DNA of 64,000 nucleotides from Achatina immaculata (taxonomy: Eukaryota; Mollusca; Gastropoda; Stylommatophora; Achatinidae), in the NCBI GenBank assembly GCA_009760885.1, contig CM019699.1:42296268-42360267 (forward strand). Direction: 5' to 3'. The translations under genes and the position numbers were made by a program. Every line of letters begins with the position of its first letter. Within the stretch, counting starts at the first letter, position 1. Of this stretch, positions 5,557 to 58,027 are shown piece after piece. The notes under the pieces were generated by a model. It was given only the letters and a program-made list of their open reading frames with translations. It was not told the origin of the DNA and did not search any database.

Positions 5557-5760
5557 CTGTTGAGATGTTTTTCTGCCCGTTTCTGGTGCACGTGGAGCTT
5601 TTGAACCAAATGCAATCTTGCTATCTAATACATGAGATTTTCTCCCACTAGCACTGAGATCTAGGTCAGGTACTGACCCTGGTCGAAACTGATCCAGAAG
5701 GCATGGGCCTTTGGCTGACTTCAATCGCTCAGAACATTTTATCTTCCCAAGCGTAAGAAC
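5557..5760 (-). CDS. host gene exon H (last one seen in the window)
   Basis: Internal coding exon of 204 bp (68 codons, phase 0 in and 0 out) of an unrecognised minus-strand gene. The acceptor is a pyrimidine-rich tract ending TTCTTTCACAG just above 5760; the donor is CAACAG/GTAACT just below 5557. The peptide opens VLTLGKIKCSERLKSAKGPC and contains LLDQFRPGSVPDLDLSASGR. Its second half is rich in Ser, Lys and Pro and looks disordered. The absence of stops in the required frame, and the phase match with exon G upstream at 13856-13947, support a real exon rather than a chance frame. No repeat in the window resembles it. The 3' part of the gene must lie left of the window or in exons I could not see. 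Function unknown. Confidence 0.6.
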
Positions 5761-5779
5761 CTGTGAAAGAATGTAAAAC

Positions 5780-5957
5780 ACACAGTCCACACATGAGTTA
5801 AAAAACATTAGTAGTCACATGTGGGTTAAACATCAGCAGATCACATGTGAGTTAAATCAACATTTATAGCTCAAAATGAGTTAAACGAACATCTACAGTT
5901 CTCAAATGTGTCAAATGAGCTAAGTGAATAATATATATATATATATATATAAAGTTC
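5780..5957. repeat. degenerate ACATGTGAGTTAAA repeats and an (AT)n tract
   Basis: Four or five imperfect units containing CACATGTGAGTTAAA, then an (AT)n run at 5930-5950 that supplies the target site of the RTE insertion immediately to the right. Confidence 0.7.
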
Positions 5958-6898
5958 CAGGTGTGAAACAAGGATGTATACTGTCTCCTTTACTTTTTGG
6001 GATTACAATAGACTTCATAATGAAAAAATGCTGCACAGGTAACACAGGTATTGACTAGGTACATGGGACCCAACTAGAAGATCTTGATTTTGCTGATGAC
6101 ATAACTCTTATCAGTAACAATGTGAATTCCATGCAAGAAAAAACAGATAGCCTGTCTTCAATGGCTAGCAAAATCAGACTTGAAATTAACAAGGACAAAA
6201 CAAAAATAATGAAAATTCCTCTCAATCAAAATGGAAAAATACACATAGAAGGGACAGATATTGAAGAAGTCAATCAATGTGCATACCTTGGCAGTTACAT
6301 AGACCAGGATGGTGACACTAGAAAGGAAGTTAGGATCAGAACTGCAAAAGCAGCATCAATCTTCAAGAATCTTGAGAACATATGGAATTCAAAAGTTATA
6401 AGCACAAAAACCAAGTTAAGACTGTTCAATTCAAATGTAATATCCACCCTCATTTATGCATGTGAAAGCTGGAAAACAACTAAAGAAATAGACAAGAAAT
6501 CAGACTCTTTTGAAAACAAATGCATAAGGAAAATACTCTGCATCAAGTGGAACAAATTCAAGGACAATACAGAGATAAGACAGACGACTGAACAACAACC
6601 AGTCTCATGGGTGATCAGGAAAAAGAGATGGACATATGTTGGTCACTTGATGAGAAGAAATGATCAGAGAATCCCAAAACAAGCTATCAAGTGGAACACA
6701 ACAGGCCAAAGAAAAAGAGGCAGACCGCGTGAAACTCTGAAGAGGACATTGCTAAAAGAAGCCAAATTAACAGGCATAAAATCCTTTGATGAGGTTGAAA
6801 GACTCGCCGAGGACAGGAGAAATTGGCGAATTGCTTTGCGAGCCCTATGTGACGTTTAACAGCACGGGAAGGATATAGGATATAGGATAGGATAGGAT
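5958..6898 (+). pseudogene. RTE LINE 3' part, 5'-truncated insertion
   Basis: A 941-bp insertion with an 11-bp target-site duplication ATATAAAGTTC (5947-5957 and 6899-6909). It starts inside the reverse transcriptase at GVKQGCILSPLLF, has LDFADDITLISN (catalytic FADD), and continues through the thumb to the C-terminal GRPRETLKRT and ALCDV, ending at 6859. The 3' tail is a GGATATA/GGATAG repeat. A single in-frame TAG at 6056 replaces the Trp codon found in the sister copy at 11577-13261; from 6122 onward 245 codons are open. This is a typical dead-on-arrival copy, relatively young because only one stop has accumulated. Confidence 0.9.
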
Positions 6899-6925
6899 AT
6901 ATAAAGTTCAATATCTCAGAAGAAA

Positions 6926-7172
6926 AATCCTAAAATCATAATCTTTCGTATTTTCCTCTACACAAAAATGACATAAATAATAACATACAAACATTAAACT
7001 CTTGTACTTTCATATTTTACACAAGATGACATAAATAAAAGACACAAATACTAAAATCATGTACTTTCATACTGCCCTCTACACACACAAAAAGACATAA
7101 ATAAAAGACACAAATACTAAAATCATGTACTTTCATACTGACCTCTACACACAAAAAAAAGATAAATAAAAG
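6926..7172. repeat. 66-bp minisatellite, left part
   Basis: Tandem units with AATCATGTACTTTCATACTG and CTCTACACACAAAAAGACAT. The unit is 66 bp (22 codons), so the minus strand reads as a repetitive open frame without being a gene. It resumes at 7968. Confidence 0.9.
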
Positions 7173-7740
7173 CCAAAGGACGATACACCTGGCAGCACAA
7201 GAGAGTGCTGCAAGAACTAGTAGCCATTGTAGACAGGCAAAAGATAAAGCAAATAATAGCAAAAGATTTGAGGTCTCATCTAAATACTTCACAGGCGCTG
7301 GTACGACATCGAATATTGAATTCACGGACATTCCCTTACCATCATTGCTAGATGGTGGAAATGACTGGGATGTGATAGCGGACCTACCAGGAAGAAGAGA
7401 ATACCCGAGTGCCATCAAGAACACTTCATAGAAATAATAGTGATCCAGCTACGGTTCTGTATGAAACAAGAATAGAGGAGCAGCATCTATTCAAATATGA
7501 GAAGTACAATGATCTGATCAAGCAAATGAGGCAGGAGTTGGGGCAAAAGTGATAGCTGTAGAAGTGGGAACAACAGGATTCATAGCAACATCAGCATACG
7601 ATGTAAGCTTCTGGGCATAAAGGGACAAGCAAGAGCAAGGGCATTGAAAAGCCTTTCAGAAACAGCAGAAAAGGCCTCATGCTGGCTGTGGAGTTTGCAA
7701 AACAAGCATTGAGAACATACATAATTTCGTTTGTCACAAC
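7173..7740 (+). pseudogene. restriction-like endonuclease remnant of an R2/NeSL-type LINE
   Basis: Translating across frames gives RRYTWQHKRVLQELV near 7182, DWDVIADLPGRREYPSAIK near 7365-7421, YETRIEEQHLFKYEKYNDLI near 7470-7529, VIAVEVGTTGFIATSAYD near 7550-7603, and GIKGQARARALKSLSETAEK near 7614-7673. This series is the C-terminal restriction-like endonuclease region seen in R2-superfamily non-LTR elements (the ADL, E, KY and VEVGxxGF blocks). At least two frameshifts and several stops are present, including TGATAG near 7551. It lies inside the 66-bp minisatellite as part of an insertion. It is the only representative of this LINE class in the window. Confidence 0.65.
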
Positions 7741-7747
7741 CAATACC

Positions 7748-7966: not shown

Positions 7967-7967
7967 C

Positions 7968-8400: not shown

Positions 8401-8464
8401 TCAAATCAGGCAAATGTTCAGCAGATAGTCCTAGTGCCTCCAGATTTTCTCATACCCCAAGATA

Positions 8465-9541: not shown

Positions 9542-9639
9542 TATATAACTTTTCAGATTGCCTGTGACCCCCCACCCAATCATTTCTACCACTGGTGCAA
9601 GTCTGAGACCTACATGGATATATAAATTATCTTTCTTTC

Positions 9640-11576: not shown

Positions 11577-13261
11577 ATCTGGCGAAAGCAACATACAAAG
11601 AAATAGACAATAAAGTAAAAAGTTCAGCTAGAAGGGATAAAAGAGAATACATAGACAATATGGCGAAAGAGGCAGAAAAAGCAGCAAAAACAGGAGACAG
11701 TAAAACTTTATATAACATACAAAAGAGGCTAACAGGTACTATTACATCTAAAGAAAGACCAATCCTTAGCAAAACTGGAACCCTATTAACATCAAATAAA
11801 GACCAAAAGCAAAGATAGGCTGAACACTTCCAAGAAGTACTTAATCGACCACACCCAAAAGAATTGTTAAACCTTGAAACTGACTTACAAGCCCCACAAC
11901 TAAATGTCAACCTAGATGAAATTAAATTGCATGAAATTGAAACGGCAGTGAATTTAATGGCTAACAACAAAGCTGCAGGTGAAGATGAAATAACAGCCGA
12001 AATGCTAAAAGCTAACAATAGTGACAACATGAGACAACTACAGAGAATGTTTAACAAGATTTGGAAAGAAGAAAAGGTCCCTTCTAATTGGAAGAAAGGA
12101 ATCATTGTTAAAACACCAAAAAAAGGCAACCTTAGTGATTGTAACAACTGGAGAGGAGTAACCTTAATATCAGTTGTGTCAAAAGTATTTTGCAAGGTCA
12201 TTTTGAATAGACTCAAAGATATAGTGGATACTGCAATGAGAGAAGAACAAGCAGGATTTCGAAAAGGGAGAAGCTGTCTCGACCAGATCTTTACTCTCAG
12301 AATAATACTTGAAGAACATATTGAAAAGCAGAAACCATTAATACTGAACTTCATAGATTTTAAAAAGGCATATTATAGCATACACAGAGATTCATTATGG
12401 AGAATTTTATGTCTATATGGAATACCATCTAAAATTGTCAACATCATTAAGGACTTATACAATGGATATGTTTGTGCAGTCAAGACAGAAGAAGGGATGA
12501 GTGAATGGTTCCAGATTGAAACAGGTGTGAAACAAGGATGTATACTGTCTCCTTTACTTTTTGGGATTACAGTAGACTTCATAATGAAAAAATGCTGCAC
12601 AGGTAACACAGGTATTGACTGGGTACATGGGACCCAACTAGAAGACCTTGATTTTGCTGATGACATAACTCTTATCAGTAATACTGTGAATTCCATGCAA
12701 GAAAAAACAGATAGCCTGTCCTCACTGGCTAGCAAAATAGGACCTGAAATTAACAAGGACAAAACAAAAATAATGAAAATTCCTCTCAATCAAAATGGAA
12801 AAATACACATAGAAGGGACAGATATTGAAGAAGTCAATCAATTTGCATACCTTGGCAGCTACATAGACCAGGATGGTGACACTGGACAGGAAGTTAGGAT
12901 CAGAATTGCAAAAGCAGCATCAATCTTCAAGAATCTTGAGAACATATGGAATTCAAAAGTTATAAGCACAAAAACCAAGTTAAGACTATTCAATTCAAAT
13001 GTAATATCCACCCTCATTTATGCATGTGAAAGCTGGAAAACAACTAAAGAAATAGAAAAGAAATCAGACTCTTTTGAAAACAAATGCATAAGGAAAATCT
13101 CTGCATCAAGTGGAATGAATTCAAGAACAATGCAGAGATAAGACAGATGACTGAACAACAACCAGTCTCACGGGTGATAAGGAAAAGGAGATGGACATAT
13201 GTTGGTCACTTGATGAGAAGAAATGATCAGAGAATCCCAAAACAAGCTATCAAGTGGAACA
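11577..13261 (+). pseudogene. RTE LINE, internal and 3' coding part
   Basis: Longest copy of the family represented at 5958-6898. It encodes the linker (REYIDNMAKEAEKAAKTGDS), then a TAG at about 11816 in place of Trp, and from 11864 an open frame of 425 codons with the reverse transcriptase: KKGNLSDCNNWRGVTLIS, EEQAGFRKGRSCLDQIF, FIDFKKAYYSIHRDSL (catalytic Asp in FIDF; the usual AFDS is AYYS), TGVKQGCILSPLLF and LDFADDITLISN. A 2-bp deletion near 13099 shifts the frame; the C-terminus continues in another frame to about 13260 and is then cut off by the minisatellite. Both ends are missing. Confidence 0.9.
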
Positions 13262-13855: not shown

Positions 13856-13947
13856 CTGTGTTTGATGAACAACATTTGAAGTCAGCTGGCATGATTTAGG
13901 GATGTTGTCTATCTCACTACTGTTTGTGTTTGAACAACCATACAGCT
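13856..13947 (-). CDS. host gene exon G
   Basis: A 92-bp segment with acceptor GTGCTATTTTTTTCAG just above 13947 and donor CAAACACAG/GTATAT just below 13856. Phase 1 in and 0 out: two bases complete a codon split with exon F, then 30 codons beginning LYGCSNTNSSEIDNIPKSCQ and ending VVHQTQ. The segment is polar and unrecognised. The pyrimidine tract is strong, the frame is open, and both phases match the neighbours (F at 15397-15588, H at 5557-5760), which is unlikely by chance for all seven exons together. Confidence 0.5.
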
Positions 13948-15396: not shown

Positions 15397-15588
15397 CATT
15401 ATGATGAGAATGCTGATAAAAGTAAAATTTGACACCTTTGTGTTTAATTGTACTTGACAAGGAGATTGTTTGTAAAAGAAGAGACTGACTGCTGCTAGAG
15501 GTCACAGTCTGAAGCAACTGCCACTCCTGAAGTGCTGTGTCTAGGTGGCCATGGCAAAGCACATATGTCAGAACAAGTTTTATGCTAG
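15397..15588 (-). CDS. host gene exon F
   Basis: A 192-bp segment, phase 1 in and 1 out (2 + 63 codons + 1). The acceptor used is GTGGTGCCCAG/CTAGC at 15588; a nearer alternative, TACATACAG/TGG, gives a stop in the required frame. The donor is CATAATG/GTATTG. The peptide includes SIKLVLTYVLCHGHLDTALQ, EWQLLQ, a Ser/Leu-rich stretch and KHKGVKFYFYQHSHHN. It appears folded (alternating hydrophobics), not low-complexity. If the donor were not used the frame would end at the TAG at 15353-15355 and this would be a terminal exon. The phase match to exon G favours an internal exon. Confidence 0.5.
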
Positions 15589-15788: not shown

Positions 15789-16196
15789 TCATCATCATCA
15801 TCATCAGGTGCCGTGCCAATTGGCATTGGCTATTATGCTTCTACAGAGTACACGATCCTTCATGCAAGCCATCAGTTCAGTTGGTGATCTCCTCTCACAC
15901 CATCCCGTCAGACTGTCCAGTATCATTTCCCTTGGTCTTCCTCTTGATCTTCTTCCTTCTATTTTTCCTGTTGTTGTAATATTTTCAATGCCCCCTCTTC
16001 TCATTGTATGTCCTCTCTTATCTTTTTGACAAGGTTTTTTTGTCTCTCCAGCTCTTCTCATACATTCTTCATTAGTTATTTTTGCTGTCCAGGGAATTCA
16101 CAACATTCTTCTAATAAACCACATTTCTGCTGCTTCCAATGATTTTTGTGCAGACCTGCCTATTGTCCATGATTCACTTCCATATAACTTCCAAGA
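15789..16196 (-). pseudogene. RTE LINE 3' fragment with GAT tail
   Basis: The plus strand opens with (CAT)n, the inverted (GAT)n tail. The minus strand encodes KLYGSESWTIGRSAQKSLEA and MWFIRRML (16098-16190), MRRAGETKKPCQ, and GKIEGRRSRGRPREM to ANANWHGT ending at about 15806. The frame changes near 16080. It is truncated at 16196, where the I-clade LINE begins. It belongs to a different RTE subfamily from its neighbours. Confidence 0.85.
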
Positions 16197-18165
16197 GAAA
16201 AACCTTGTACTAGCAGCGTGGATAGACCTGAAGAAAGCCTTTGATAAAATATGGAAAAAAGGTCTGTTGTGGAAACTAAGAAACTGCAATGTGAATGGAA
16301 GACTGTACAACTGGATAAAGTCCTATTTACACAATAGAAGAGCTAGAGTAGTAATGGATGGACACAAAAGCCAGAAAGTACTTCTGCGACACGGTGTACC
16401 ACAAGGAGGAGTCCTTTCGCCTACACTATTCCTTGTATTCATTAATGACCTGGTCAAGGAACTTCCCTATGGAATCAAAGCAGCACTGTATGCAGATGAC
16501 CTGGTCATGTGGTGTACAGATGAATATGCGACAGTTGCTACACAGAGACTCCAAAGAGCAGCAGACATCTTGACATCATGGACAAACAAATGGTGTGTAA
16601 GTATCAACACAGAGAAATCAAGTACCACTCTGTTCACCCTCTCATCTAAACAGAAAGCAGGTAAGATCTTTGTAAATGAAATACCCTTAAGGATGGACAA
16701 CCAACCCACTTACTTAGAAGTGACTCTTGACTCAAAACTGACTTGGAAGCAACACATCAACAGTGCAGAAGCAAAAGCCAGAAAAAAACTAGCCATATTA
16801 AGAAAATTGAGTGGGACTACATGGGGAGCTAGTGAAAGAATCCTCAAGAATGTATATCAGCAAAGTATTCTACCACATTTAGAATATGGCTCAACATCTT
16901 GGTGCACAGCATCAAACACTACGCTGCATAATCTAGACAAGGTTCAAAATCAGTCACTACGGATTATCACAGGTGCCATGAGGTCCACACCAATAGTAGA
17001 AATGCAGAAAATAGTTGGTGTTCAACAAAGGAACGTAGAGACACAAAGGTCATGACCATGGGAGAAAAATTCCTTAGCTCTGTAAGCCATCCCCTGAAGG
17101 AGAGATTCAATAACTTGGCATTAGGACGGCTTAAAAGAAGCAGCTTCATTCATCAGGCCAAGCGTATGCGTAAGCTGATACCTGACCTTCCAACTGTAGT
17201 CACTCCATTATCATCTGTACCAGAGCATACACCATGGAAAGAAGCAGATTATACACAAATAACTATTCAGACTGAAGTGAAAGGTGTGCAGAATGGTGAG
17301 ATGCAGAGCAGTCTTGTAAGATCAACAGCCACACTTAGTGTTCTAGATGACAAATATCCATGTGACACCTGGATACGTATGTATACAGATGGATCGGCAC
17401 ATAATGCCATAAAGAATGGTGGGGCAGGAGCATATATTGAATATCCAAACAACACCATTGACAAGATTTCCATACCCACTGGTAAATACTGCAACAACTT
17501 TGATGCAGAAGTTAGGGCAATTATTGCTGCAGTTGAAAAACTATCAGACTCCAGAATTGATACATGTCCTGTAGTAATTCTCACAGATGCAAGATCAGTA
17601 CTGGAGGCTCTTCAGTGCAACAAACTACCAGACCTTAAGGATGCCTTGTCAAAAATTGGCTTACAACATGGAGTCACTTTGCAATGGATTCCCTCCCACT
17701 GTGGGATACCAGGCAATGAGAAAGCTGACCATCTGGCCAAAGAGGGCACTGAAATGGAGCAACCAGACATACCAATCACCTATAATCAGAAGAAAAGCAT
17801 GATAAAAACCTACAGGAAGCCACAAACACCACCACATGATGACTATCACATGCTAAACAGAAAGGAACAAGTCACCATCTTCCGTCTCCGAACAGGACAC
17901 AGCCGACTCCGAAGTCATATGTATACAAAGTTTAAGGTTGGTACTACTAATCTATGTACATGTGCCCAGGTGCCCCAAACCGTGGAACATATCCTCCAGA
18001 ACTGCATAAACTACGAGACACTGAGAAATAATTACTGGCCCAGTGAAACCACTAAAGAAGATAAGCTCTACGGTTCCATACATGAGTTACAAAAAACAGT
18101 GAAATTTATCCAAGAGACAGGACTGCAGATATAGACAGACAGTGCGAACGAAGAAGAAGAAGAAG
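16197..18165 (+). pseudogene. I-clade LINE with RNase H domain, 5'-truncated, one frameshift
   Basis: Non-LTR retrotransposon opening in the reverse transcriptase at LVLAAWIDLKKAFDKIWKKG (catalytic Asp), then RHGVPQGGVLSPTLF and ALYADDLVMW (YADD). The first frame is open from 16198 to 17055. A frameshift near 17050 moves into a second open frame to 18134, with the RNase H domain: MYTDGSAHNAIKNGGAGAYI, NFDAEVRAIIAAVEKL, PVVILTDARSVLEALQ and QWIPSHCGIPGNEKADHLAK, which hold all four acidic positions. A Cys/His C-terminus follows (TNLCTCAQVPQTVEHILQNC). It ends with GCGAACGAAGAAGAAGAAG. Apart from missing the 5' half and the one frameshift it is well preserved. The terminal motif is shared with the non-autonomous GAA-tailed family. 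Confidence 0.9.
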
Positions 18166-19630
18166 AAATCATCAATATCAGCTCCTGTATGCGACTTACA
18201 TGAACTACAAACATTCCTGGACAGCAGATGTACTGATTTTAAACAGTTACACATTCCATTCTTAACAGTCAGTGAAGTTCACAGTTATCTCTTAACCTTA
18301 AAAAACAACAATACAGCTGGGCTTGATGATATTAGTAATAAGATTTTATGTTATGCTGCACCTGTCATTTCACATACACTAACATATATTTATAACCAGT
18401 GCATTGCAAAATGTTATTTCCCTGAGGTTTTTAAAACTGCTAAGGTGTATCCTCACTTTAAATCTGGCTCATCCAACAATCTTACCAACTATAGACCAAT
18501 ATCCATATTATCGTCATTATCAAAACCACTCGAAAAACACATACACAAAATAACTCTACAACACATTCAAGAGAACAATTTACTCATAGACAGTCAATCA
18601 GGCTTTAGACACAATCATTCCTGCCACACAGCTCTTACCAAAATGACAGAAAACTGGTTAGTAAACATAAATGACGATAGACTATGTGGTGCCATCTTTG
18701 TCGACTTTAAAAAGGCATTTGATATGACTGACCATGATATTCTTGTAAGAAAAATAAAGACTTATAAATTGCACCCTGACCTAATAAAATTAATTGCATC
18801 GTTTCTTTCAGACAGACAACAGGTAGTATTCTTCAACAATTCTCTATCAAATTCTGCTACAGTTGACACTGGTGTTCCGCAAGGTTCTATTCTAGGCCCG
18901 TTGCTCTTTGCTATCTATGTCAATGATCTTCCACTTCATCTTAAACACTCTTCTTGTGACCTTTTTGCCGATGATTGCACAGTCTACGCCAGTGACTATG
19001 ATTATGTTAATCTAGCATCAACTCTTCAGGTCGATTTATACAATTTAATTCGATAGAGCAAAAATAATGGCATGATTATAAATACCTATAAAACAAAATC
19101 AATGCTCATAGCAACAAGACAGAAAATACAAAACGCAACAAAAACACACTTAGGCTCTGTACAGAAACATCACAAATAGAAAACGTTAGCGAGCACACAA
19201 CACTAGGTCTTATTATTGACCAACATCTGACCTGGAACTCTCATGTGCAATGTCTAACAAAACTCATCGCACAAAAAGTATACCAGTTAGCCAAAATTAA
19301 GCACTTCATTGATCAAGACACTAGGAAGACATACTACATATCTCATATACAAACACATTTAGACTATTGCTCAACAGTTTGGGATGGTTGCTCAGTGTCA
19401 AATACAAAGAGGCTTTGCTCACTCCAAAAGCGAGCAGTAAAGCTTATTAGTGACAAAGATCAAGCACAAACAACTAACCAGCACAAACATATCAAAATAC
19501 TGTCTCTTAAGAACAGGTTCCTCTTCAACAAAGCCAAGTTAGTACATCAAATTCTTTCACGGCATGCCCCGCCTTATCTATGGAACCTATTTAAATTTAG
19601 CCCAAAGTGCAGCCAACGCTTGAACAACAT
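18166..19630 (+). pseudogene. CR1/Jockey-like LINE, left part
   Basis: Reverse transcriptase open from 18142 to 19056 with NYRPISILSSLSKPLEKHIH, QSGFRHNHSCHTAL, FVDFKKAFDMTDHDIL (catalytic Asp), DTGVPQGSILGPLLFAIYVN and DLFADDCTVYASD (FADD). A stop at 19054-19056 is followed by a decayed stretch, and the C-terminal frame reopens at 19245 (THLDYCSTVWDGCSVSNTKR). The copy at 49081-52000 is its paralogue. It is split at 19630 by a minus-strand RTE and resumes at 20525. Two bases of uncertainty remain at the junction with the GAA tail on its left. Confidence 0.85.
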
Positions 19631-23233: not shown

Positions 23234-23390
23234 CATCATCATCAGTTGTGTCGGGTGGCTGATTCTTCATTGTAAACACACGCCTCAGCTTACAGTTGGC
23301 TGAGACTGATATCTGGTCTAGACATCGAAATGTCTGGCTGATCCATGTTTCTCCTACAAATGACACCAAGTCAATTACCAAATTCAGCCA
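23234..23390 (-). CDS. host gene exon E
   Basis: A 157-bp exon with an excellent acceptor (ATTTATATTTTTTTTCAG just above 23390) and donor GATGATG/GTAAGG just below 23234. Phase 0 in, 1 out: 52 codons plus one base. The peptide opens WLNLVIDLVSFVGETWISQT and contains FRCLDQISVSANCKLRRVFT, ending in an acidic DTTDDD. It looks like a folded domain segment, is not related to any repeat in the window, and is the strongest single exon candidate with exons A and H. Gene identity unknown. Confidence 0.6.
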
Positions 23391-25379: not shown

Positions 25380-26019
25380 ATAGCTTTTATATGCTTCAGA
25401 TCAAATCAGACTGTGCCATGCCACAAGGCATAGGCGGTCATCTATCTCCATCTTGCTCCATCTTCCATCTTCCATGTCTCGAATCAATTCAATTGTTTTT
25501 CCACCAAATCATGCAGTCAAGTCATCCAAATATTTCTGTCTTCTTTGCCCTCTCTGTCATTTGCCATTTACCTTTCCAGCCATGACCAATTTTTCGAAAC
25601 CTTCATATCTGCTGATGTGTCCAAGAAACTCTGATTGTATTTTTATTATGTATGGCACCAGTCTGAGATATTCCTTTGTCTGCTGTAATACTTCTTCATT
25701 TGCCTTTCTGGCTTCCATGGTATGTGAAGCATCCTTCTTAAGAACCACATTTCAGTAGTCTTTATTCTTTGTTCTAATTGCTTATTCATGGTCCATGTTT
25801 ACTTGTATAAAGCAGAATAGTTCTATATTGCACCTTAGAATTCACTTTCTTATTGCCAGTGACAGTCTTTGTTTTGTTAATATGTTCTTCATTTGTCCAA
25901 AAGCTGTCTTTGCCATTGCTATCCTGGTTCTGATTTCTTCAGTGCACCTGCCATCAGAAGCTATGACTATAGCTAAATATTTGTATCTGCTGATCTTCAT
26001 ATCTTCCACTGCACTATAG
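25380..26019 (-). pseudogene. RTE LINE, 3' part of the copy that hosts a mariner
   Basis: Minus-strand RTE similar to 1364-3300. Seen are MKISRYKYLAIVIASDGRCT (thumb), KTAFGQMKNILTKQ, ARKANEEVLQQTKEYLR, and IQSEFLGHISRYEGFEKLVM with GKVNGK. Between the Asp-bearing FIDY segment (26020-26054) and AVEDMKISRYKYL most of the catalytic core is missing. The rest of this element lies at 27132-27430 and 27628-27795, rearranged by a duplication. Confidence 0.8.
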
Positions 26020-26119
26020 TAATCTATGAAGCACACATAAAGATCTCTGCTCACTTCTTGTAGTCACTCTATTAACATCCTTTATATGAAAATTGTGTTT
26101 GTTGTTCTTTTTCCTTCTA

Positions 26120-27131
26120 CAGGGTCCGGCATAAAGCATAGCTAGATTTAACTGACGTAGTGTGCAGAAACTGAATACGTGTGAAAAAAAATATGACGTC
26201 AGAGATGAAGCAGACAAACGGTCATTTTTAACAATGGCTTCTTGGCAAACACAACACCGCACATTCACCACTGAAACTTATTTTAAAAGTGGAGAACCGT
26301 ATTTAAAAAGTGGAGAATCGTCTGTACAATAAAAGTTTCATCACCATTTTGAGTTGGATCCCCATGATAATGTTTCCGATCGGAGGACAAAACAATTTTG
26401 AGGTAGGTCAAAAAATTTAAGGAAACCTCTAATTGCCTTAATAACAAGTCTACTGGGCATCCAAGAACTCAACAGACACCTGAACGAAATCAAGAAGTCC
26501 ACAACGCATTGCTCAGTTGCCCTGTGATCAGCTGTTAGGAACGCTTTGGCACTTGGCATCCTCTTACTATTAATAGTGATCTTTATGTGCAGATGCTAAC
26601 TGAATACTTCATTCTAGATACTTCATTCTAGACTTGGCCAAAAGAAATAAGAGACTAATATGGTTTCAACATGATGGAGCATCTGCCCACACAGCCCGTC
26701 AGTCCATGGCCATGCTGCGACAAGCATTTCCCAATCGTCCTATTTCCAGATTTGGGGATATTCATTGGCCAGCAAAGGTCACTGGATTTATCGGCCACAG
26801 ACTTTTTTGTAGAGGTATCTCAAGAACACAGTGTATGCTAGTCAACCATAGTCAATTGCAGACCTAAAAGATCGAATTCGACACTGCATTCAAAATATCC
26901 CTTTGAATATGTTAAATGCTGTTATGCAGGAATTTTCCAGACGCCTGGCTGAATGTATCACATGTAATGGCGGTCATCTAACCGGCATAATTTTCAAAAC
27001 CTAAATATGATTGTTAGTAATAATAAAAATACCCACTTTTCTGAGTTTCATTTCACTTCTTTTTATCAAAAACATGTATAGCATTTATTTATTTTCCATT
27101 TTTATTCAGCTATGCTTTATGCCGGACCCTG
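26120..27131 (+). mobile_element. mariner-type transposon (copy 1), transposase dead
   Basis: A 1012-bp element with perfect 24-bp terminal inverted repeats starting CAGGGTCCGGCATAAAGCAT. It is inserted in an RTE at TA (26118-26119; the right duplicate reads AA). The plus strand encodes a decayed transposase from ATGGCTTCTTGGCAAACACA (26235): MASWQTQHRTFTTETYFKSG, then ELDPHDNVSDRRTKQ, and at 26634-26867 KRLIWFQHDGASAHTARQSM (Asp of the DDE core in QHDGA) and FPNRPISRFGDIHWPAKV; then IADLKDRIRHCIQNIP and RRLAECITCNGGHL at the C-terminus. Stops occur, so it cannot encode an active protein, yet the ends are perfect and could still be mobilised in trans. Confidence 0.9.
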
Positions 27132-27430
27132 AACAAATCCACATTGTTCTTCTAATATTTCTGGTTTAATCTTGTTTTTCATCTTCATCATTTTAATTCT
27201 TAGTGATCTTGGTGGCATGGCTCATAAGACTGATCATACAGTGCTGATCATGTTGAATAGCTCTCGCCTTTTTTGGAAGTGTAATGAAGATTGACTTAGT
27301 TAAGTCTGTTCGCATTTCTCCTGCATGATACATTGCACTTAACAGTTCTGTGACTGTTTCAGTTCTGAAATCTTCCAAAGCTTTTATCATTTCTGTGGAA
27401 AAAACCAGGAGCTTTACTGGTTTTCATTCA
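27132..27430 (-). pseudogene. RTE reverse transcriptase N-terminal segment
   Basis: Minus-strand MIKALEDFRTETVTELLSAM, DLTKSIFITLPKKARAIQHD and QHCMISLMSHATKITKN, the start of an RTE reverse transcriptase, upstream of the mariner insertion. The mariner sits in the segment that normally reads EEQCGFVxGKGT. Confidence 0.85.
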
Positions 27431-27436
27431 TGTCAG

Positions 27437-27627
27437 AGCATCTGTGATATGCTTAGTCTGTGATATGCTTAGTGTGTGATATGCTTGGTGTGTGATATGC
27501 TTAGTCTGTGATATGCTTAGTGTATAATATGCTTAGTCTGTGATATGCTTAGTGTGTGATATGCTTAATGTGTGATATGCTTAGTGTGTGTGATATGCTT
27601 AGTGTGTGATGTGCTTAGTCTGTGATG
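27437..27627. repeat. 16-bp minisatellite (short block)
   Basis: About 12 units of TGATATGCTTAGTCTG or GTGTG variants. The same repeat expands to about 1 kb at 29178-30192. Confidence 0.92.
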
Positions 27628-27795
27628 GTATTGTCCACTTACTGCTGCCATTTGTTGCCAGTAGATGTTTTTTACTATCTGTAAGTCTCTTCCATCAATT
27701 TCCACTTTATCAAGCAACTTAAAAATTTCTTCATGTCTTACTCTATCAAATGCTCTATTGTAATCTATGAAGCACACATAAAGATCTCTGCTCAC
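27628..27795 (-). pseudogene. RTE reverse transcriptase motif A segment
   Basis: Minus-strand SRDLYVCFIDYNRAFDRVRH (catalytic Asp in FIDY), EIFKLLDKVEIDGRDLQIVK and NIYWQQMAAVSG. In copy 1 of the duplication the equivalent frame jumps from FIDY directly to the thumb, so this block survives only here. Confidence 0.85.
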
Positions 27796-27860
27796 TTCTT
27801 GTAGTCACTCTATTAACATCCTTTATATGAAAATTGTGTTTGTTGTTCTTTTTCCTTCTA

Positions 27861-28872: not shown

Positions 28873-29171
28873 AACAAATCCACATTGTTCTTCTAATATT
28901 TCTGGTTTAATCTTGTTTTTCATCTTCATCATTTTAATTCTTAGTGATCTTGGTGGCATGGCTCATAAGACTGATCATACAGTGCTGATCATGTTGAATA
29001 GCTCTCGCCTTTTTTGGAAGTGTAATGAAGATTGACTTAGTTAAGTCTGTTCGCATTTCTCCTGCATGATACATTGCACTTAACAGTTCTGTGACTGTTT
29101 CAGTTCTGAAATCTTCCAAAGCTTTTATCATTTCTGTGGAAAAAACCAGGAGCTTTACTGGTTTTCATTCA
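28873..29171 (-). pseudogene. RTE reverse transcriptase segment, duplicate
   Basis: Second copy of the segment at 27132-27430 (LTKSIFITLPKKARAIQHDQ), carried by the 1741-bp duplication. Confidence 0.85.
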
Positions 29172-29177
29172 TGTCAG

Positions 29178-31320: not shown

Positions 31321-31449
31321 GTGGAAGAATAAATTAAGGAACAGATAGCAGGTAAACTGAACATCTGTGAGTAAGAGGAGAAGGCTGGAGAACATTTTTG
31401 CTTACACAGTTGTATAAATAAAGGGCAGACTAGAGAATGTTTTTTTCTT

Positions 31450-36500: not shown

Positions 36501-37440
36501 GAGACACTCTCTGCTGGTTAGGATGAGTTAATAGAAAAAAGTTTGGAGACACTCTCTGCTGGTTTAGATGGCTGAATAGAAGAAAGTTTGGAGACACTCT
36601 CTGCTGGTTTAGATGAGTGAATAGAAGAAAGTTTAGAGACACTTTCTGCTGGTTTAGATGAGTGAATAGAAGAAAGTTTGGAGACACTCTCTGCCGGTTT
36701 AGATGAGTGAAGAGAAGAAAGTTTGGAGACACCCTCTGCTGGTTTAGATGAGTGAATAGAAGAAAGTTTGGAGAAACTCTCTGCTGGTTTATATGAGTGA
36801 ATAGAAGAAAGTTTGGAGACACTCTCTGCTGGTTTATATGAGTGAATAGAAGAAAGTTTGGCGAAACTCTGCTGGTTTATATGAGTGAACAGAAGAAAGT
36901 TTGGAGACACTCTCTGCTGGTTTATATGAGTGAATAGAAGAAAGTTCAAGACACTCTCTGCTGGTTTAGATGAGTGAACAGAAGAAAGTTTGGAGAATTC
37001 TCTGCTGGTTTTGATGAGTGAATAGAAGAAAGTAAGTTTGGAGACATTCTCTGCTGGTTTTGATGAGTGAATAGAAGAAAGTAAGTTTGGAAACATTATC
37101 TCCTTGTTTAGATGAATGAAAGGAAGTTTGGAGACATTCTCTGCCTGTTTAGGTAAATGAATGAAAGGAAGTTTGGAGACATTCTCTCCTTGTTTAGATG
37201 AATGAATGAAAGGAAGTTTGGAGACATTCTCTGCTGGTTTAGGTGATTGAATGAAAGGAAGTAAGTTTGGAAACATTCTCTCCTTGTTTATGTGAACGAA
37301 TAAAAGGAATTTTTGAGATATTTTCTCTTTGTTTGGGTGAATGAATGAAAGGAAGTTTGGAGACATTCTCTGCTTTTTTATGTAAACAAATGAAAAGAAG
37401 TTTGGAGACATTCTCTCCTTGTTTAGGTGAATGAATGAAA
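33199..37440. repeat. 45-bp satellite with higher-order structure
   Basis: Roughly 90 units of a 45-bp repeat with GAATAGAAGAAAGTTTGGAG and ACACTCTCTGCTGGTTTAGA. A block recurs at 33553, 34136 and 35165 (offsets 583 and 1029 bp), recognisable by the variant GGAGACACTCTCCCACATTT. From about 35940 the units grade into a GAATGAAAGGAAGTTTGGAG variant. Because 45 is divisible by three, minus-strand frames up to 327 codons are open; they are not genes. Confidence 0.95.
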
Positions 37441-38376: not shown

Positions 38377-38483
38377 CACTGCTCTCCTGGCTATTGTCAA
38401 AGGTACCTTTGCATGAAGTGGGGTCACCTGTGTTTCTTTTTGTGCTGTAGACAGTAGAAGCCTCCTCTTGTTGTTCCCCATGT
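38377..38483 (-). CDS. host gene exon D (least certain)
   Basis: Segment after the tract TTTTTTGTTGTTGACAAAG and AGTAACAG, phase 1 in. After two bases the frame reads MGNNKRRLLLSTAQKETQ, then VTPLHAKVPLTIARRAV to the donor GCAGTG/GTACGT (107 bp in all). Two earlier donors, ACACAG/GTGACC (exon end at 38428) and GCAAAG/GTACCT, are also in phase 0, so the exon may be shorter. The frame is phase-compatible with B and E. It is basic rather than hydrophobic, and I rate it lower because the peptide has no recognisable pattern and the acceptor is not clean. Confidence 0.35.
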
Positions 38484-38499
38484 CTGTTACTCTTTGTCA

Positions 38500-40068: not shown

Positions 40069-43000
40069 CCCCCGTGTGGTACCCGGGATCTGCAAAGAAT
40101 AGGACCACTGTACCCTACCACGCATGATCGTAAAAGGCGACTAAGGAGGGTTGGGCATAGGGCCAGCAACCCTATCTGGTAAAAAAAACTATCAGACTGC
40201 TACAGAAACGGAAGCAAGGGAAAAAACAAATGCAGGTGGAAGGAGAAATGCTAATCAGGAAACTAAGCCCATGAAGGTTGTGGATGAAAGCCAGCCACTG
40301 GAAGTCACCAGCCCGACTGCAGACCTCCTGGAACCTAAACACAAGATGCAAATAAGCAGCTGGAATGTAAGAACACTTAATCAGACTGGAAAACTAGCAC
40401 AAACCATCAAGGAAATGCACGGATACAAACTAGACATACTAGGAATACAAGAAGCAAGATGGACAGGACAAGGCAGAAGGAAATTAACAACACAGCACAC
40501 AGAAGATACAATAATATGGTCAGGTAAAGAAGATCTTCATGAAGGAGGAGTAGCATTGATTATAACAAAAGAAGCATCAAGAGCATTGCTGAAATGGACC
40601 CCAATAAATGAGAGATTATTATATGCACGGTTCAACTCAAGATTCATGAAGATGTCTATTATAGTTTGTTATGCACCAACAGAAGCAGCTGAAGAGGAAT
40701 TAAAAGATTTTTACAACAGCCTCCAAGCCACAGCAGAAACAATACCCAAGCATGATATGCTACTCATCTTGGGCGACTTCAATGCAAAAGTAGGTGAAGG
40801 AAATGAAGATAGAAGAAGAATCATGGGAAGAGAAGGAATCGGAGAAATAAATGAAAATGGAGAAAGACTGTGCAGTTTCTGTGAAGAAAACATGATGACC
40901 ATCGGGGGGACAATTTTCCAACACAAAAACATCCATAAGGTGACTTGGAGGTCACCAGATAAAACCATAGAAAACCAAATCGATCACATACTAATAAACA
41001 ACAAGTGGAAACAGTCACTACAAGATGTGCGAGCAAGGAAAGGAGCAGATGTAGGAAGTGATCACAACCTTCTGGTAGCAAAAATAAAACTAAAATTAAG
41101 GAAAGCCAAAATCGGAGAATACAGAAAGATACATTTTAATACAAGAAAACTGAAAGACCAGCAAACAAGAAATGAATTCTCAATAGTACTTAAGAACCGC
41201 TTCACTGTCCTACAAGACGAAGCAGAAATGTCCATACTAGAGTTCAATAAAACACTACAGGAAACAACAAAAGAGGTGCTGGAATATCGGAAAAGGAGAA
41301 AAGAGGAATGGATAAGAAAGACTACATGGGAAAAAATACAGCAAAGAAAAGAAATCAAGAAAAAATTACTGAACACCAAATCACAACGGCTTAAAGAACG
41401 AGTTTTAAGTAATTATGCACAAAAAGACAAAAAAGTGAAGGAATCATGCCGTCAAGATAAATGTCAATACTATGACAACTTAGCAGAAACAGCAGAGAAA
41501 GCAGCATATACAAATGACATGAAAACCACATATAAAATCACAAAGCAGATGACAGGCAACTTCAACACAAGATGTGAAAGTGCAACAAGGACACAAAATG
41601 GACAACTGGTCAGTGGAGAAAGAGAAAAAATTGAAAGATGGAGGGAACACTTTAACACCCTACTAAACAGAACACAAGCAGCACAAACAATAGACATACC
41701 TGAAGCAAAAACGGAACTAAACATCAATACAGGACCAATAACAATAAGTGAAGTAAAGGAGGCGATAAAGAAGCTAAAATCAGACAGGGCACCAGGTGAA
41801 GATGAAGTGACTGCTGAGATGTTGAAAGCAGAAGAAACAGAAACACCAAAACAACTTTGCCGGATATTACAACAAATTTGGGATCTAGAAAAAGCCCCAG
41901 AGGAGTGGAAAACTGGGCTTATAGTAAAACTACTAAAGAAGGGTGACCTCAGAGACTGCGGGAACTGGAGAGGCATTACCCTACTGCCACTCACCAGTAA
42001 AGTATTTTGCAGAATAATCATCAACAGAATTGTACCAACACTTGAGGAAAAACTTCGGAAAGAGCAGGCAAGATTTAGGAAAGGAAGATCATGCATAGAC
42101 CACATATTTGTACTTAGACAAATATTAGAACAGGCAAATGAGTGGCATAGCACAACATATGCATTATTCATAGATTTTGAGAAAGCCTTTGACAGTGTCA
42201 ACAGAGATGCACTGTGGAAAATTCTAAGATGGCATGGCCTCCCCCATAAGATAGTTAATGTAATCAAAGCCCTATACGAGGGTTTTCAGTGCAAAGTGAT
42301 CTGTGGAGAACATACCTCCAGCAGCTTTAGTGCACAAACAGGAGTGAAACAGGGATGTGTACTATCATCAACATTATATATCTTGGCAGTAGACTGGTTA
42401 ATGGAGGAGGCAACATCAGACAAACGCAGAGGATTACAATGGACCCCTGACACAGTGCTGGAGGACCTTGACTTTGCGGATGATATTGGTCTGTTATCAA
42501 GCAGTCACAAAGATATGCAAGATAAAATAAACAAGCTAACTCAGAATGCAAACAACATAGGACTAAAGATCAACGTAGGAAAGACAAAGTTAATGAAGCA
42601 AAATGTGAACAACAGAAATGTACTCAGAGTAGATAGCAAGTTAGTGGAGGAGGTCAACGAATGTGTATACCTTGGCAGCAGAGTAGTAGAAAATGGAGAC
42701 AGCACTGAGGACATCAACAGCAGACTTACTAGAGCAAACCAGGCTTTTGCAATGCTGCAGAATATATGGAAATCAAAAAAACTAAGCATAAATATGAAAA
42801 TCAGGATATTTAAGAGTAATGTTCTAAGTGTACTACTCTATGGAAGTGAATGCTGGAAAATCACCAAAACCATAGAAAACAAGTTGAATTCTTTCCAGAC
42901 TAAATGTTTACGAAGAATTAGAAAAATATTTTGGCCAAACACCATAAGAAATAACATCTTATTGGCAGAAATGCAGATGACGCCACCGACAACAATTATT

Positions 43001-43264
43001 GAGCAAAGACGCTGGCGATGGTTGGGACATGTGCTCCAAATGACTGACAACTCACTACCAAAAATAGCACTAAGATGGACACCACAGGGGAACAGAAGTA
43101 AGGGTAGACCAAAAGAGACATGGAGAAGAACAACAGAAAGGATGCTGAGCAACAGAGGGCTCACTTGGGCAAGAGCAGAAAAAAAGGCGAAGGACAGGCA
43201 TTTGTGGAAAACCCTTGCGGAAGCCCCATGTGCCCTGGGCACTTAAGGTTCAGAGAGAGAGAGA
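40069..43264 (+). mobile_element. full-length RTE retrotransposon
   Basis: A 3196-bp insertion flanked by a perfect 12-bp target-site duplication GACCTCTAGAGC (40057-40068 and 43265-43276). It begins CCCCCCGTGTGGTACCCGGG, has a 5' leader of about 200 bp with two predicted hairpins, a single intact ORF, and ends with a short (GA)n tail only about 18 bp after the stop codon. Identical flanking duplications and no disabling stop indicate a recent insertion. Confidence 0.93.
40271..43246 (+). CDS. RTE endonuclease-reverse transcriptase, intact ORF
   Basis: Single 991-codon ORF of the RTE, encoding the enzyme that nicks target DNA and reverse-transcribes the element RNA. I start at the first in-frame ATG, 40271; the frame is open from 40151 but without an ATG. 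Endonuclease domain: SSWNVRTLN with Asn32, IQEARWTG with Glu61, LILGDFNAKVG with Asp169 and Asn171, and SDHN with Asp264 and His265. A Lys/Glu-rich linker follows. Reverse transcriptase: LRDCGNWRGITLLPLTSKVF, YALFIDFEKAFDSVNRDAL with Asp635, TGVKQGCVLS near 690 and DFADDIGLL with catalytic FADD at 735-738. The C-terminus has RRWRWLGHVLQM and GRPKETWRRT near 945. One oddity: QAGFRKGRS of the sister copy is QARFRKGRS here (Arg601 for a usually conserved Gly), which may impair activity. Confidence 0.92.
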   Translation: MKVVDESQPLEVTSPTADLLEPKHKMQISSWNVRTLNQTGKLAQTIKEMHGYKLDILGIQEARWTGQGRRKLTTQHTEDTIIWSGKEDLHEGGVALIITKEASRALLKWTPINERLLYARFNSRFMKMSIIVCYAPTEAAEEELKDFYNSLQATAETIPKHDMLLILGDFNAKVGEGNEDRRRIMGREGIGEINENGERLCSFCEENMMTIGGTIFQHKNIHKVTWRSPDKTIENQIDHILINNKWKQSLQDVRARKGADVGSDHNLLVAKIKLKLRKAKIGEYRKIHFNTRKLKDQQTRNEFSIVLKNRFTVLQDEAEMSILEFNKTLQETTKEVLEYRKRRKEEWIRKTTWEKIQQRKEIKKKLLNTKSQRLKERVLSNYAQKDKKVKESCRQDKCQYYDNLAETAEKAAYTNDMKTTYKITKQMTGNFNTRCESATRTQNGQLVSGEREKIERWREHFNTLLNRTQAAQTIDIPEAKTELNINTGPITISEVKEAIKKLKSDRAPGEDEVTAEMLKAEETETPKQLCRILQQIWDLEKAPEEWKTGLIVKLLKKGDLRDCGNWRGITLLPLTSKVFCRIIINRIVPTLEEKLRKEQARFRKGRSCIDHIFVLRQILEQANEWHSTTYALFIDFEKAFDSVNRDALWKILRWHGLPHKIVNVIKALYEGFQCKVICGEHTSSSFSAQTGVKQGCVLSSTLYILAVDWLMEEATSDKRRGLQWTPDTVLEDLDFADDIGLLSSSHKDMQDKINKLTQNANNIGLKINVGKTKLMKQNVNNRNVLRVDSKLVEEVNECVYLGSRVVENGDSTEDINSRLTRANQAFAMLQNIWKSKKLSINMKIRIFKSNVLSVLLYGSECWKITKTIENKLNSFQTKCLRRIRKIFWPNTIRNNILLAEMQMTPPTTIIEQRRWRWLGHVLQMTDNSLPKIALRWTPQGNRSKGRPKETWRRTTERMLSNRGLTWARAEKKAKDRHLWKTLAEAPCALGT

Positions 43265-45485: not shown

Positions 45486-46044
45486 TTATACATTATGGAC
45501 AATGGCGTGCATCTGATGAACCTAGCAGACAACTGTCAGCCATGCTTACCCAAGCTCCAAAGAAAAATCTACTCCTTTAGGCAGAAAGAGCTGCAGCACA
45601 AGAAATCTCTGGATCAGACTTACTGGAACATGAAAGATGATACAAAACATGTTACTATGCTATAGCAGATGGGCACATAAATAATAAACATTCCAAATAA
45701 TATTACACCACAGTTACATTTTGATGATCATAATATTGAGCTTTGCTTCAACTTTTAGCTAATGAAACTAAGCCTATGTATTTATATTTGTATACAAGCA
45801 AGCAGCTTCTTTTGACTTTAGTTTTTCACCTTAGTTTATTTATTTAGCTTTCAAACAAGAGAACATTAACTGATTGGTTTCAGGAGCAGACAAAAAAGTC
45901 TAAATTTAATTTAAGATAAAATTAGTAAAAGTTAAAATCTGCTATTAGGTGACAAAAATAGAAGTTACAATTTCTGTGTTTATTGATAACATCACTTTTT
46001 ATTTGTTTCAAATTGTTAACATTTGTTGTTTAGTTATGTCAGTC
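45486..46044. other. no supported gene
   Basis: AT-rich. An exon-like minus-strand segment at 45550-45590 has fair splice sites but fails the required frame; see rejected items. Confidence 0.5.
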
Positions 46045-52830: not shown

Positions 52831-52839
52831 TTAGGTTGA

Positions 52840-53110: not shown

Positions 53111-53204
53111 AGCTTTGTTTTTGATCCTTGGGAGAAGTGAGTTTTGTGGTAGCTGGTGAACCTTCCAGTAGCAAAACATATCCCTTCACATCCTTCTCAT
53201 AGAT
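53111..53204 (-). CDS. host gene exon B
   Basis: A 94-bp segment with acceptor CACAATCTCATTTGCAG just above 53204 and donor CAAAGCT/GTAAGAG just below 53111. Phase 0 in, 1 out: 31 codons IYEKDVKGYVLLLEGSPATT then KLTSPKDQKQS plus one base. The first half (KDVKGYVLLLEGS) looks like a beta strand in a folded domain. Phases match exon A upstream and exon D downstream. No repeat similarity. Identity not recognised. Confidence 0.55.
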
Positions 53205-54543: not shown

Positions 54544-54545
54544 TA

Positions 54546-55560: not shown

Positions 55561-55612
55561 GCATGGAAATGAGAATTAGATTCAATAAATGACATAAGAT
55601 ATTCAACACCTT

Positions 55613-55895: not shown

Positions 55896-55944
55896 ATTCA
55901 ACACCTTATTATAAAATAAGCTTTGTATTAGAAGATTTTGCCAA

Positions 55945-56105
55945 ATTGTAGACTAGTATTCTGAGCAAGTTTAATGTGGGCTAGGCTAATGTAAGTATTC
56001 TGAGCAAATTTAATGTGGACTATACTAATGTAAGTATTCTGAGCATGTTTAATGTGAGCTATGCTAATGTAAGTATTCTGAGCATGTTTAAGGTAGGCTA
56101 GACTA
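55945..56105. repeat. 39-bp minisatellite
   Basis: Four units with GTAAGTATTCTGAGCATGTT and TAATGTGGACTATGCTAAT. Confidence 0.88.
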
Positions 56106-56289
56106 AGCTTTGATGTTTGGTAGGATAGGGGTATTAAATGCATTTATGACTTGCAATATTTTCATCTTACAATGTGTTCATCAGAATGTAACCCCATTGT
56201 AAGTCCAGGAGTAGTTTTTTTGTAAGTTAACATATTTCAAACTTCTGTATCATGTTGTTAACTTGGTAAATTAAAGAGTATGGAACACA

Positions 56290-57270
56290 TCAATGAATGT
56301 GAGACATGACAAATAAGTATAGGTCATGACAATTAGTGTGAGACATGACAATGAGTGTGAACATAACAATGAGGGTTGGACATGACAATGAATGTGGGTA
56401 AGACAATCAGTATAGGTAATGACAGTAAGTGTGGGTTATGACAATGAGTGTGGGACATGTCAATGAGTCTGGGACATGACAATGAGTGTGGGTAATGACA
56501 ATAAGGGCGGGTCATAACAATGAGTGTAGGACAAGTCAATAAGTGTACAAGATATGTCAATAAGTGTGGACATGAATGTGGGACATGTAAGTGTGAGACA
56601 AGTCAATGAGTATGGGACATGAGTGTCAATGAGTGTGGGACATGTCAATGAGTGTGGGACATGTCATTAAGTGTGGGACATGAGTGTGGGTTCTGACAAT
56701 GAGTGTGGGTTATGACAATAAGTGTGTGACATAACAATGAGTGACAATAACTGTGGGTTATGATAATGAACATGGACATGACAATAAGCATGGGTTATGT
56801 CAATGAGTGTGGGACATGTCAATGAGTCTGGGACATGACAATGAGTGTGGGTAATGACAATAAGGGCGGGTCATAACAATGAGTGTAGGACAAGTCAATA
56901 AGTGTACAAGATATGTCAATAAGTGTGGACATGAATGTGGGACATGTAAGTGTGAGACAAGTCAATGAGTATGGGACATGAGTGTCAATGAGTGTGGGAC
57001 ATGTCAATGAGTGTGGGACATGTCATTAAGTGTGGGACATGAGTGTGGGTTCTGACAATGAGTGTGGGTTATGACAATAAGTGTGTGACATAACAATGAG
57101 TGACAATAACTGTGGGTTATGATAATGAACATGGACATGACAATAAGCATGGGTTATGTCAATGAGTGTGGACATGACAACAAGCATGAGTTATGGCAAT
57201 GGACATGACAATGACCATAGGTTATGTCAATGAGTGTTGACATGACAATAAGCATCAGTTATGACAATGA
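56290..57270. repeat. GACAATGAGTGTGG minisatellite with a 359-bp duplication
   Basis: Irregular units of about 20-25 bp (GTGTGGGACATGTCAATGA, GGGTTATGACAATAAGTGTG). A 359-bp block (about 56450-56808) is repeated exactly, as far as I compared, at 56809-57167. Confidence 0.92.
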
Positions 57271-57654
57271 GTGTCATACAAATACATCTGTAATACCTGT
57301 TCTGTATTTGCAGAGGGGTTTTAAAGTTAGTTTTAATTGATTAAATAAGGAATTATTATTTGTATACATGTGTGTACACTGTGTGCAAGTGTGTACATGT
57401 AGTGCAAGTGTATACGTGTGCGTGCATGTACATTTGTGCGTGCATATGTGGGCATGAATGTGCATGTGTTTTGCTATAGGATTTTTATTTTGTGAGTTTC
57501 ATCTGAATAAAGGATTGAAAATCCCACCACAAATACTTTCCCCCTCCACCACTCACATGAGTAAATAAGAGTTACCTAACCTCTACAAACTAAATGTATA
57601 TCCCACTCTTAACACAATTCACTTACTTTTCTAAAGATAGATGAGTTAAAGATT

Positions 57655-57830
57655 ATGATAAAACCGGTTCTAGTAGATTGTCAAATATGTATGGTGCAGT
57701 GAGATAAGCATGTAGAAATGTAAAACAAACTGTAACAAACAAATATTTTGGTGATATGCCTATATCAGGAATGATGAAAATAATGAAACAAATAAACACA
57801 AAAGTAACACATCTGGTATCAAGCAAGTAA
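57655..57830 (+). mobile_element. Penelope-like-style fragment
   Basis: Has AAAACCGGTTCTAGTAGATT and ATGTATGGTGCAGT, as in the element at 23430-23660, and TTTTGGTGATATGCCTATATC then AGGAATGATGAA. Non-coding; duplicated at 59692-59867. Confidence 0.4.
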
Positions 57831-57897
57831 TGTCTATTATTAAGTAATACTTACATTATTTTTTTTAACTGTTACAGTCACCTTCAATAATGTTTAC

Positions 57898-58027
57898 CTT
57901 TTTAATGCCTGAGTTAGACTCTTTCCAGTTAGTCATAAAGTCATGTCCTTGTGTGGTGAAGAGCTCTAGGTAAGGACCACCCTGACACATGGAAAATGAC
58001 TGAATCATAAACTGAAAGAGTTCTATA
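57898..58027 (-). CDS. host gene exon A (copy 1)
   Basis: A 130-bp exon with acceptor TGAAGTTTATGTCTGCAG just above 58027 and donor ATTAAAAAG/GTAAACAT just below 57898. Phase 2 in (one base finishes a codon), 0 out; 43 codons: IELFQFMIQSFSMCQGGPYL then ELFTTQGHDFMTNWKESNSG and IKK. It reads as part of a folded helical domain and is not low-complexity. It is the most 5' exon I can identify; earlier exons would lie to the right of the window. An identical copy is at 59935-60064. Splicing both copies would shift the frame, because 130 is not a multiple of three. Confidence 0.6.

What the first reader, a model, noticed from the sequence alone, without database searches (positions are those of the whole stretch)
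5557..58027. Cryptic host gene: seven phase-compatible exons on the minus strand across 52 kb of transposons
Seven short segments with GT donors and pyrimidine-tract/AG acceptors sit between repeats: 57898-58027, 53111-53204, 38377-38483, 23234-23390, 15397-15588, 13856-13947, 5557-5760. In transcription order their phases at the six junctions match (0, 1, 0, 1, 1, 0) with no stop, giving 325 codons. I chose some splice sites (F acceptor, D donor) with phase in mind, so the agreement is not fully independent. I cannot name the protein.
Basis: partly seen in the sequence, partly recalled or inferred. Interest (0 to 1): 0.75.

Follow-up and report, generated by a model that had tools for sequence, protein, structure and literature searches.

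The report
Snail CFAP20DC gene across transposon-filled introns
The scattered exons belong to an ordinary animal gene, the land-snail version of the cilium-related gene CFAP20DC, stretched over about 141 kb by repeat-filled introns; six of the seven proposed exons are real (two with one wrong edge), one is unsupported and two were missed.

Summary
On the minus strand lies the ortholog of CFAP20DC (human C3orf67), a CFA20-domain protein. Exon E (15397-15588) is not supported: 0 of 240 homologs spanning that junction carry more than 7 extra residues there. Two exons were missed: the ATG exon (63966-63989) and exon 4 (45550-45622). Two acceptors were misplaced: exon 2 begins at 57981, not 58027, and exon 5 at 38491, not 38483. 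The corrected window model (8 exons, 843 nt, 281 aa, no stop; junction phases 0,0,1,2,0,1,0) raises the CFA20 match from 81.8 to 130.5 bits. Spliced alignment with six homologs, human included, gives the same splice sites for exons 2-8. In the fetched flanks the gene runs on to a stop near window position -76818: about 141 kb, about 965 aa. A tree places it beside the land snail Candidula unifasciata. Exon 2 lies in a near-identical 2-kb tandem duplication, so an identical copy exists at 59935-60018. Best mechanism: a ciliary/centriolar microtubule-associated protein with a CFAP20-like domain (inferred from the family). An ordinary gene in repeat-rich DNA; interest low.

The parts
63966..63989 (-).
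   Evidence: One of two equally scoring candidates in a scan of about 104 kb upstream of exon 2, preferred because it matches the Physella and Bulinus starts MSFKNGFQ and MSYKSGYQ; used by 5 of 6 spliced alignments, in full by three (P0095, P0183, P0087) and from its third codon by two (P0157, P0109); the sixth template, P0001, is partial and starts after it
59935..60018 (-). Exon 2, upstream copy: GGPYLELFTTQGHDFMTNWKESNSGIKK, phase 0-0
   Evidence: tblastn; identical in sequence and splice borders to 57898-57981; chosen in 6 of 6 spliced alignments, but since the copies are identical this does not say which is used
57898..57981 (-).
   Evidence: tblastn; the partial Candidula protein P0001 begins exactly at GGPY
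57244..61328 (.). Tandem duplication, period about 2,037 bp, carrying both copies of exon 2
   Evidence: 98.1% over 2,052 columns; before the 54-bp satellite 1 difference in 1,137 bp
53111..53204 (-).
45550..45622 (-).
   Evidence: tblastn 88% identity to Candidula over 25 aa; 6 of 6 spliced alignments
38377..38491 (-).
   Evidence: 6 of 6 spliced alignments
23234..23390 (-).
   Evidence: tblastn 3.1e-26, 87% identity to Candidula over 52 aa; 6 of 6 spliced alignments
15397..15588 (-).
   Evidence: 0 of 240 homologs spanning the exon 6/7 junction have more than 7 extra residues there; unused in 6 of 6 spliced alignments
13856..13947 (-).
5557..5760 (-).

Best explanation
The segments are coding exons of the CFAP20DC (C3orf67) ortholog of a gastropod, most likely a stylommatophoran land snail or slug; the window holds coding exons 1-8. 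The gene is read from the minus strand and spans about 141 kb, from the ATG at window 63989 to a stop near window -76818. Its introns hold non-LTR retrotransposons and satellite arrays that must be spliced out. The protein (about 965 aa, of which the window encodes 281) has an N-terminal CFA20 domain and a long tail with conserved short motifs. Shown: homology, splice-site and phase consistency, an open frame, closeness to CFAP20DC, and a CFAP20-like fold for the Candidula ortholog. Inferred: the gene is expressed, and the CFA20 domain binds tubulin or microtubules in cilia or centrioles, as CFAP20 and the WDR90/POC16 domain do. The role of the tail is not known to me.
For: The corrected model hits CFA20_dom in one stretch at 7.6e-38, 130.5 bits. 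Identity of the 281 aa: Candidula 77% (273 aa), Bulinus 69%, Physella 68%, Littorina 61%, sea urchin 54%, human 47%. Same borders for exons 2-8 with six templates, human included. Downstream exons follow in order on the same strand to the conserved C-terminus, then GTC TTG TGA. Tree: window with Candidula, 100/98. Structure of the Candidula ortholog: the 18 PDB matches at E<=1e-3 are all chains of axonemal complexes, TM-score 0.65-0.72 normalised by target (0.31-0.37 by query). WDR90/POC16 DUF667 domains bind microtubules and tubulin (PMC7500955, passages read).
Against: No RNA reads. 5,000 bases next to window position 1 read N; templates disagree on small exons after exon 8. The human template's downstream part is scattered over many fragments, and the Physella run departs in its last exons. 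The Candidula fold has modest confidence (mean pLDDT 62.4, pTM 0.53, 26 sequences; blocks of the first 60 residues 28-64). Genome copy number was not tested. Microtubule binding of CFAP20DC itself is reported in nothing I read.
Confidence: 0.97

Rival explanations
1. Decayed CFAP20DC copy (pseudogene) invaded by transposons.
For: Large, repeat-filled introns; tandem duplication holding exon 2. No RNA evidence was available, and a second copy elsewhere in the genome was not excluded.
Against: 843 nt open through 8 exons with GT/AG at every internal border; the same borders for exons 2-8 from six templates; 77% identity to Candidula; the downstream model is open to the conserved C-terminus, though the aligner penalises stops and so favours open models.
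Confidence: 0.02
2. Chance chain of phase-compatible open segments, no gene.
For: Open AG...GT segments are common: 191 intervals on the minus strand and 111 on the plus strand in a crude scan.
Against: Strand-specific homology down to 3e-26 in the right order, absent from the reversed window.
Confidence: 0.005
3. Exon E is a lineage-specific or alternative exon of this gene, or an exon of another gene nested in intron 6.
For: Open for 63 whole codons with AG/GT borders and phase 1-1; weak Pfam similarity to Reelin_subrepeat-B, E 0.0012, 19.1 bits against a cutoff of 27.
Against: 0 of 240 spanning homologs have more than 7 extra residues there, and the Candidula protein joins the flanking exons directly; no second copy in the 264 kb read, less 5 kb of N; open AG...GT intervals of 180-210 nt number 15 on the minus and 19 on the plus strand in the crude scan, whose rules E itself does not meet.
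Confidence: 0.04

Closest known systems
CFAP20DC / C3orf67 (animal ortholog group)
   Same: N-terminal CFA20 domain; tail stretches shared with mollusc orthologs (PHPPR.PSSDRVRRR, DDDTSFSTWKAP, SNPR|DWS, LNCYYDP.TKKYYEL); length near that of other molluscs (most of those listed are 894-1042 aa)
   Different: About 141 kb long here; exon 2 present twice in the assembly
CFAP20 / FAP20 / BUG22 (axonemal inner-junction protein)
   Same: CFA20 domain and fold
WDR90 / POC16
   Same: N-terminal CFA20 (DUF667) domain, which binds microtubules and tubulin (PMC7500955, passages)
   Different: WDR90 continues into WD40 repeats; Pfam finds none in three full CFAP20DC proteins

Membership tests
CFAP20DC (C3orf67) | N-terminal CFA20 domain (PF05018) | tested here: met
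   7.6e-38, 130.5 bits against a cutoff of 24, residues 3-173 of 281
CFAP20DC (C3orf67) | Best matches are CFAP20DC/C3orf67, not CFAP20 or WDR90 | tested here: met
   No listed row (65 of 65) or 50 (best 120 of 700) is named CFAP20 alone or WDR90; names are CFAP20DC, C3orf67, CFAP20/CFA20 domain containing, uncharacterized, hypothetical, unnamed or none, and one 'transporter' (P0183). Searches are limited by protein length
CFAP20DC (C3orf67) | Long tail with shared motifs ending in CYYDP...KYYEL | tested here: met
   Collinear exons in fetched flanks
CFAP20DC (C3orf67) | Place in a tree agrees with species relationships | tested here: met
   29-row tree: window with Candidula 100/98 among ten heterobranch rows 100/99 (two rows unnamed). 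Deeper parts are poor: Nematostella falls with Branchiostoma (84/67) and several forks are open. No CFAP20 or WDR90 outgroup was included
CFAP20DC (C3orf67) | Single ortholog in the genome | not tested
   The whole-genome protein search did not complete
CFAP20 | Protein of about 190-215 aa, little more than the domain | tested here: not met
   The frame continues beyond the domain: 281 aa in the window, about 965 in all
WDR90/POC16 | WD40 repeats after the CFA20 domain | tested here: not met
   No WD40 in the 281 aa nor in three full orthologs; the 965-aa model itself was not scanned

The most novel reading that the evidence does not exclude
The two identical copies of the phase 0-0 exon 2 are a true, recent exon duplication, and some transcripts include both, giving a CFA20 domain with a doubled 28-residue stretch near its start; or exon E is a young, lineage-specific exon.
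Probability: 0.05. Interest if true: 0.3.

Novelty: new member of a known kind. Interest (0 to 1): 0.13.

Why it matters
A real multi-exon gene was seen by eye in 64 kb of repeats, and the corrected model describes a little-studied cilium-related gene in a land snail. It also shows the limit of phase agreement as evidence: the one exon that homology does not back fitted the frame as well as the others.

Tried and rejected
Exon E was tested against 182 and then 243 homologs (179 and 240 span the junction), against 264 kb of this locus (5 kb of it N), and with Pfam; only a sub-threshold reelin-like match remains. Rfam at gathering scores found nothing in the window.

Papers: the search for CFAP20DC (18 papers, 18 listed), for C3orf67 (46 papers, 15 listed) and for C3orf67 with cilia (2 papers) showed titles and the starts of abstracts; none of those shown is about the protein's function. 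The searches on DUF667/WDR90/CFAP20 (4 papers) and CFAP20 with inner junction and cilia (33 papers, 8 listed) were used to choose papers. Of PMC7500955 I read passages; PMC9633640 and PMC11779644 do not hold CFAP20DC or C3orf67 in the main text (find).

The small exons that the aligner placed after exon 8 (for example 2431-2441, 2485-2509, -5816..-5788) differ between templates and are not claimed; 5,000 N lie there. Exons 15 and 16 of the Bulinus run are one exon (-51802..-51248) in the Plakobranchus and Physella runs.

Whole-genome searches for exon E copies and for CFAP20DC paralogs were attempted many times and never answered, so copy number is untested.

Full report
What was checked. Given that translation, Pfam reports CFA20_dom at 6.5e-23, and a protein search returns 65 proteins at E<=1e-3, led by an unnamed protein of the land snail Candidula unifasciata (9.3e-107), a sea urchin C3orf67 homolog and CFAP20DC/C3orf67 proteins of many vertebrates. 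The gene is therefore CFAP20DC.

Corrections to the model. tblastn places the missing residues at 45549-45623, and the exact exon is 45550-45622. Exon C needs the acceptor 8 nt further upstream, so that GG|A GTA ACA GAC reads GVTD. Exon A starts at 57981. A scan of about 104 kb upstream of exon 2 for a short ATG exon gave two candidates with the same score; the one reading MSFKGAYQ, at 63966-63989, matches the Physella and Bulinus starts MSFKNGFQ and MSYKSGYQ. The corrected window protein has 281 aa from 843 nt with junction phases 0,0,1,2,0,1,0 and scores 130.5 bits in one stretch against CFA20_dom, against 81.8 bits in two stretches before.

Independence of the model. I wrote a spliced protein-to-DNA aligner and ran it over 142 kb with six templates: Bulinus, Plakobranchus, Physella, Littorina, the partial Candidula protein and human. 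Exons 2 to 8 have identical borders in 6 of 6 runs. Exon 1 is used in full by three and from its third codon by two; the Candidula template lacks those residues. No run uses exon E. The aligner prefers consensus splice sites and penalises stops, which favours tidy models. As a control, seven homologs were compared with the reversed window: the best match was 0.25, against best values of 1e-16 to 3e-26 in the real window, where the matches below 1e-3 are all on the minus strand.

Exon E. Of 243 homologs held at that point, 240 span the exon 6/7 junction and none has more than 7 extra residues there; 223 have none. No second copy of E was found in the 264 kb read, 5 kb of which is N. A weak likeness to Reelin subrepeat B (E 0.0012, 19.1 bits against a cutoff of 27) was not followed further, because the genome search did not complete. 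A crude scan finds many open AG...GT intervals (191 on the minus strand, 111 on the plus; at 180 nt or more 15 and 19). Its strict rules recover only four of the nine intervals that I checked (57898-57981, 53111-53204, 23234-23390, 5557-5760) and not E itself, so it gives only a rough idea of chance.

The whole gene. In fetched flanks of the same contig (window = C17:42296268-42360267, genome of 1.65 Gb in 145 contigs) further exons follow in order on the minus strand to the conserved C-terminus KYYEL, then V, L and TGA. With the ATG at 63989 and the stop near -76818 the gene covers about 141 kb. Six downstream exons have the same borders in the Bulinus and Plakobranchus runs (-16059..-15940, -26277..-26063, -38963..-38855, -54849..-54580, -60204..-60122, -76812..-76697); four others agree except at one border or by being split in one run. 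The Physella run departs in its last exons, and the human run scatters its tail over many small fragments. One or more short exons after exon 8 remain unplaced; 5,000 bases there read N. The window's introns between coding exons are 3.9 to 15.0 kb, and tandem repeats cover 28.7% of the window. Of eight long frames scanned, five hold reverse transcriptase or RNase H domains of non-LTR retrotransposon type and three had no match.

Species. A 29-row tree joins the window with Candidula (100/98), among ten heterobranch gastropod rows (100/99), two of them unnamed. Identity is 77% to Candidula and 75% to the sea slug Plakobranchus. Candidula is the only row that I know to be a stylommatophoran, so 'land snail or slug' is likely but rests on one close relative. 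The deeper parts of the tree are poorly resolved.

Duplicated exon 2. The exon lies in a tandem duplication of period about 2,037 bp (98.1% over 2,052 columns); before a 54-bp satellite there is 1 difference in 1,137 bp, and the exon copies are identical. Exon 2 is phase 0 at both ends, so either copy, or both, could be spliced in without a frame change. A short-query search matched exon 2 in 131 of 243 homologs, none of them twice. Five further tandem duplications at 99.4-100% identity, with periods of 1.15 to 4.8 kb, lie in the same 264 kb, one of them 100% over 4,769 bp; a further tandem pair at -69670..-66569 is 97.1%. They may be recent or may be assembly errors.

How it works. The Candidula ortholog, folded with an alignment of 26 sequences, gives a beta-rich domain (mean pLDDT 62.4, pTM 0.53; blocks of ten residues from 61 to 220 average 71-94, the first six blocks only 28-64). 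The 18 PDB matches with E<=1e-3 come from 13 entries, all axonemal complexes: doublet microtubules, the Chlamydomonas inner junction and central pair, and the Tetrahymena N-DRC baseplate. Twelve of these 13 entries also appear in the sequence search, where the matching chains are named CFAP20, FAP20 or CFA20 domain-containing protein. The related DUF667 domain of WDR90/POC16 decorates microtubules in cells, and recombinant domains from seven species bind microtubules and tubulin in vitro (PMC7500955, passages read). I therefore infer that CFAP20DC is a ciliary or centriolar microtubule-associated protein whose domain docks on tubulin. The docking is inferred from the family; that the tail recruits other parts is a guess.

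Verdict. A correct and skilful observation of an ordinary conserved gene. Interest is low; the corrected gene model is the useful product.

Noticed in passing
window 26010-29368, 30092-33597, 57244-61328, 61511-63822; and window-relative 104655-114203 and 138569-141971 in the flank: Six near-identical tandem duplications with periods of 1.15-4.8 kb in 264 kb (98-100% identity; one is 4,769 bp at 100%). Recent duplications or assembly errors.
   Followed up: partly
window 40145-43246 (+): One open frame of 1,033 codons with endonuclease and reverse transcriptase domains: an apparently uninterrupted non-LTR retrotransposon frame inside intron 4.
   Followed up: partly
window 11819-13141, 16030-17055, 16932-18134, 18103-19056 (+): Further frames with reverse transcriptase (three) or RNase H (one) domains, inside CFAP20DC introns and on the opposite strand to the gene. 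Three other frames scanned had no Pfam match.
   Followed up: partly
window 33202-37436: Satellite array of a 45-bp unit, about 94 copies, inside intron 5.
   Followed up: no
window 15397-15588 (-): Weak, sub-threshold likeness of the exon E peptide to Reelin subrepeat B (E 0.0012); copies elsewhere in the genome could not be sought.
   Followed up: partly
P0183 (Plakobranchus ocellatus): Its source calls this CFAP20DC ortholog 'transporter', apparently a misnaming.
   Followed up: no
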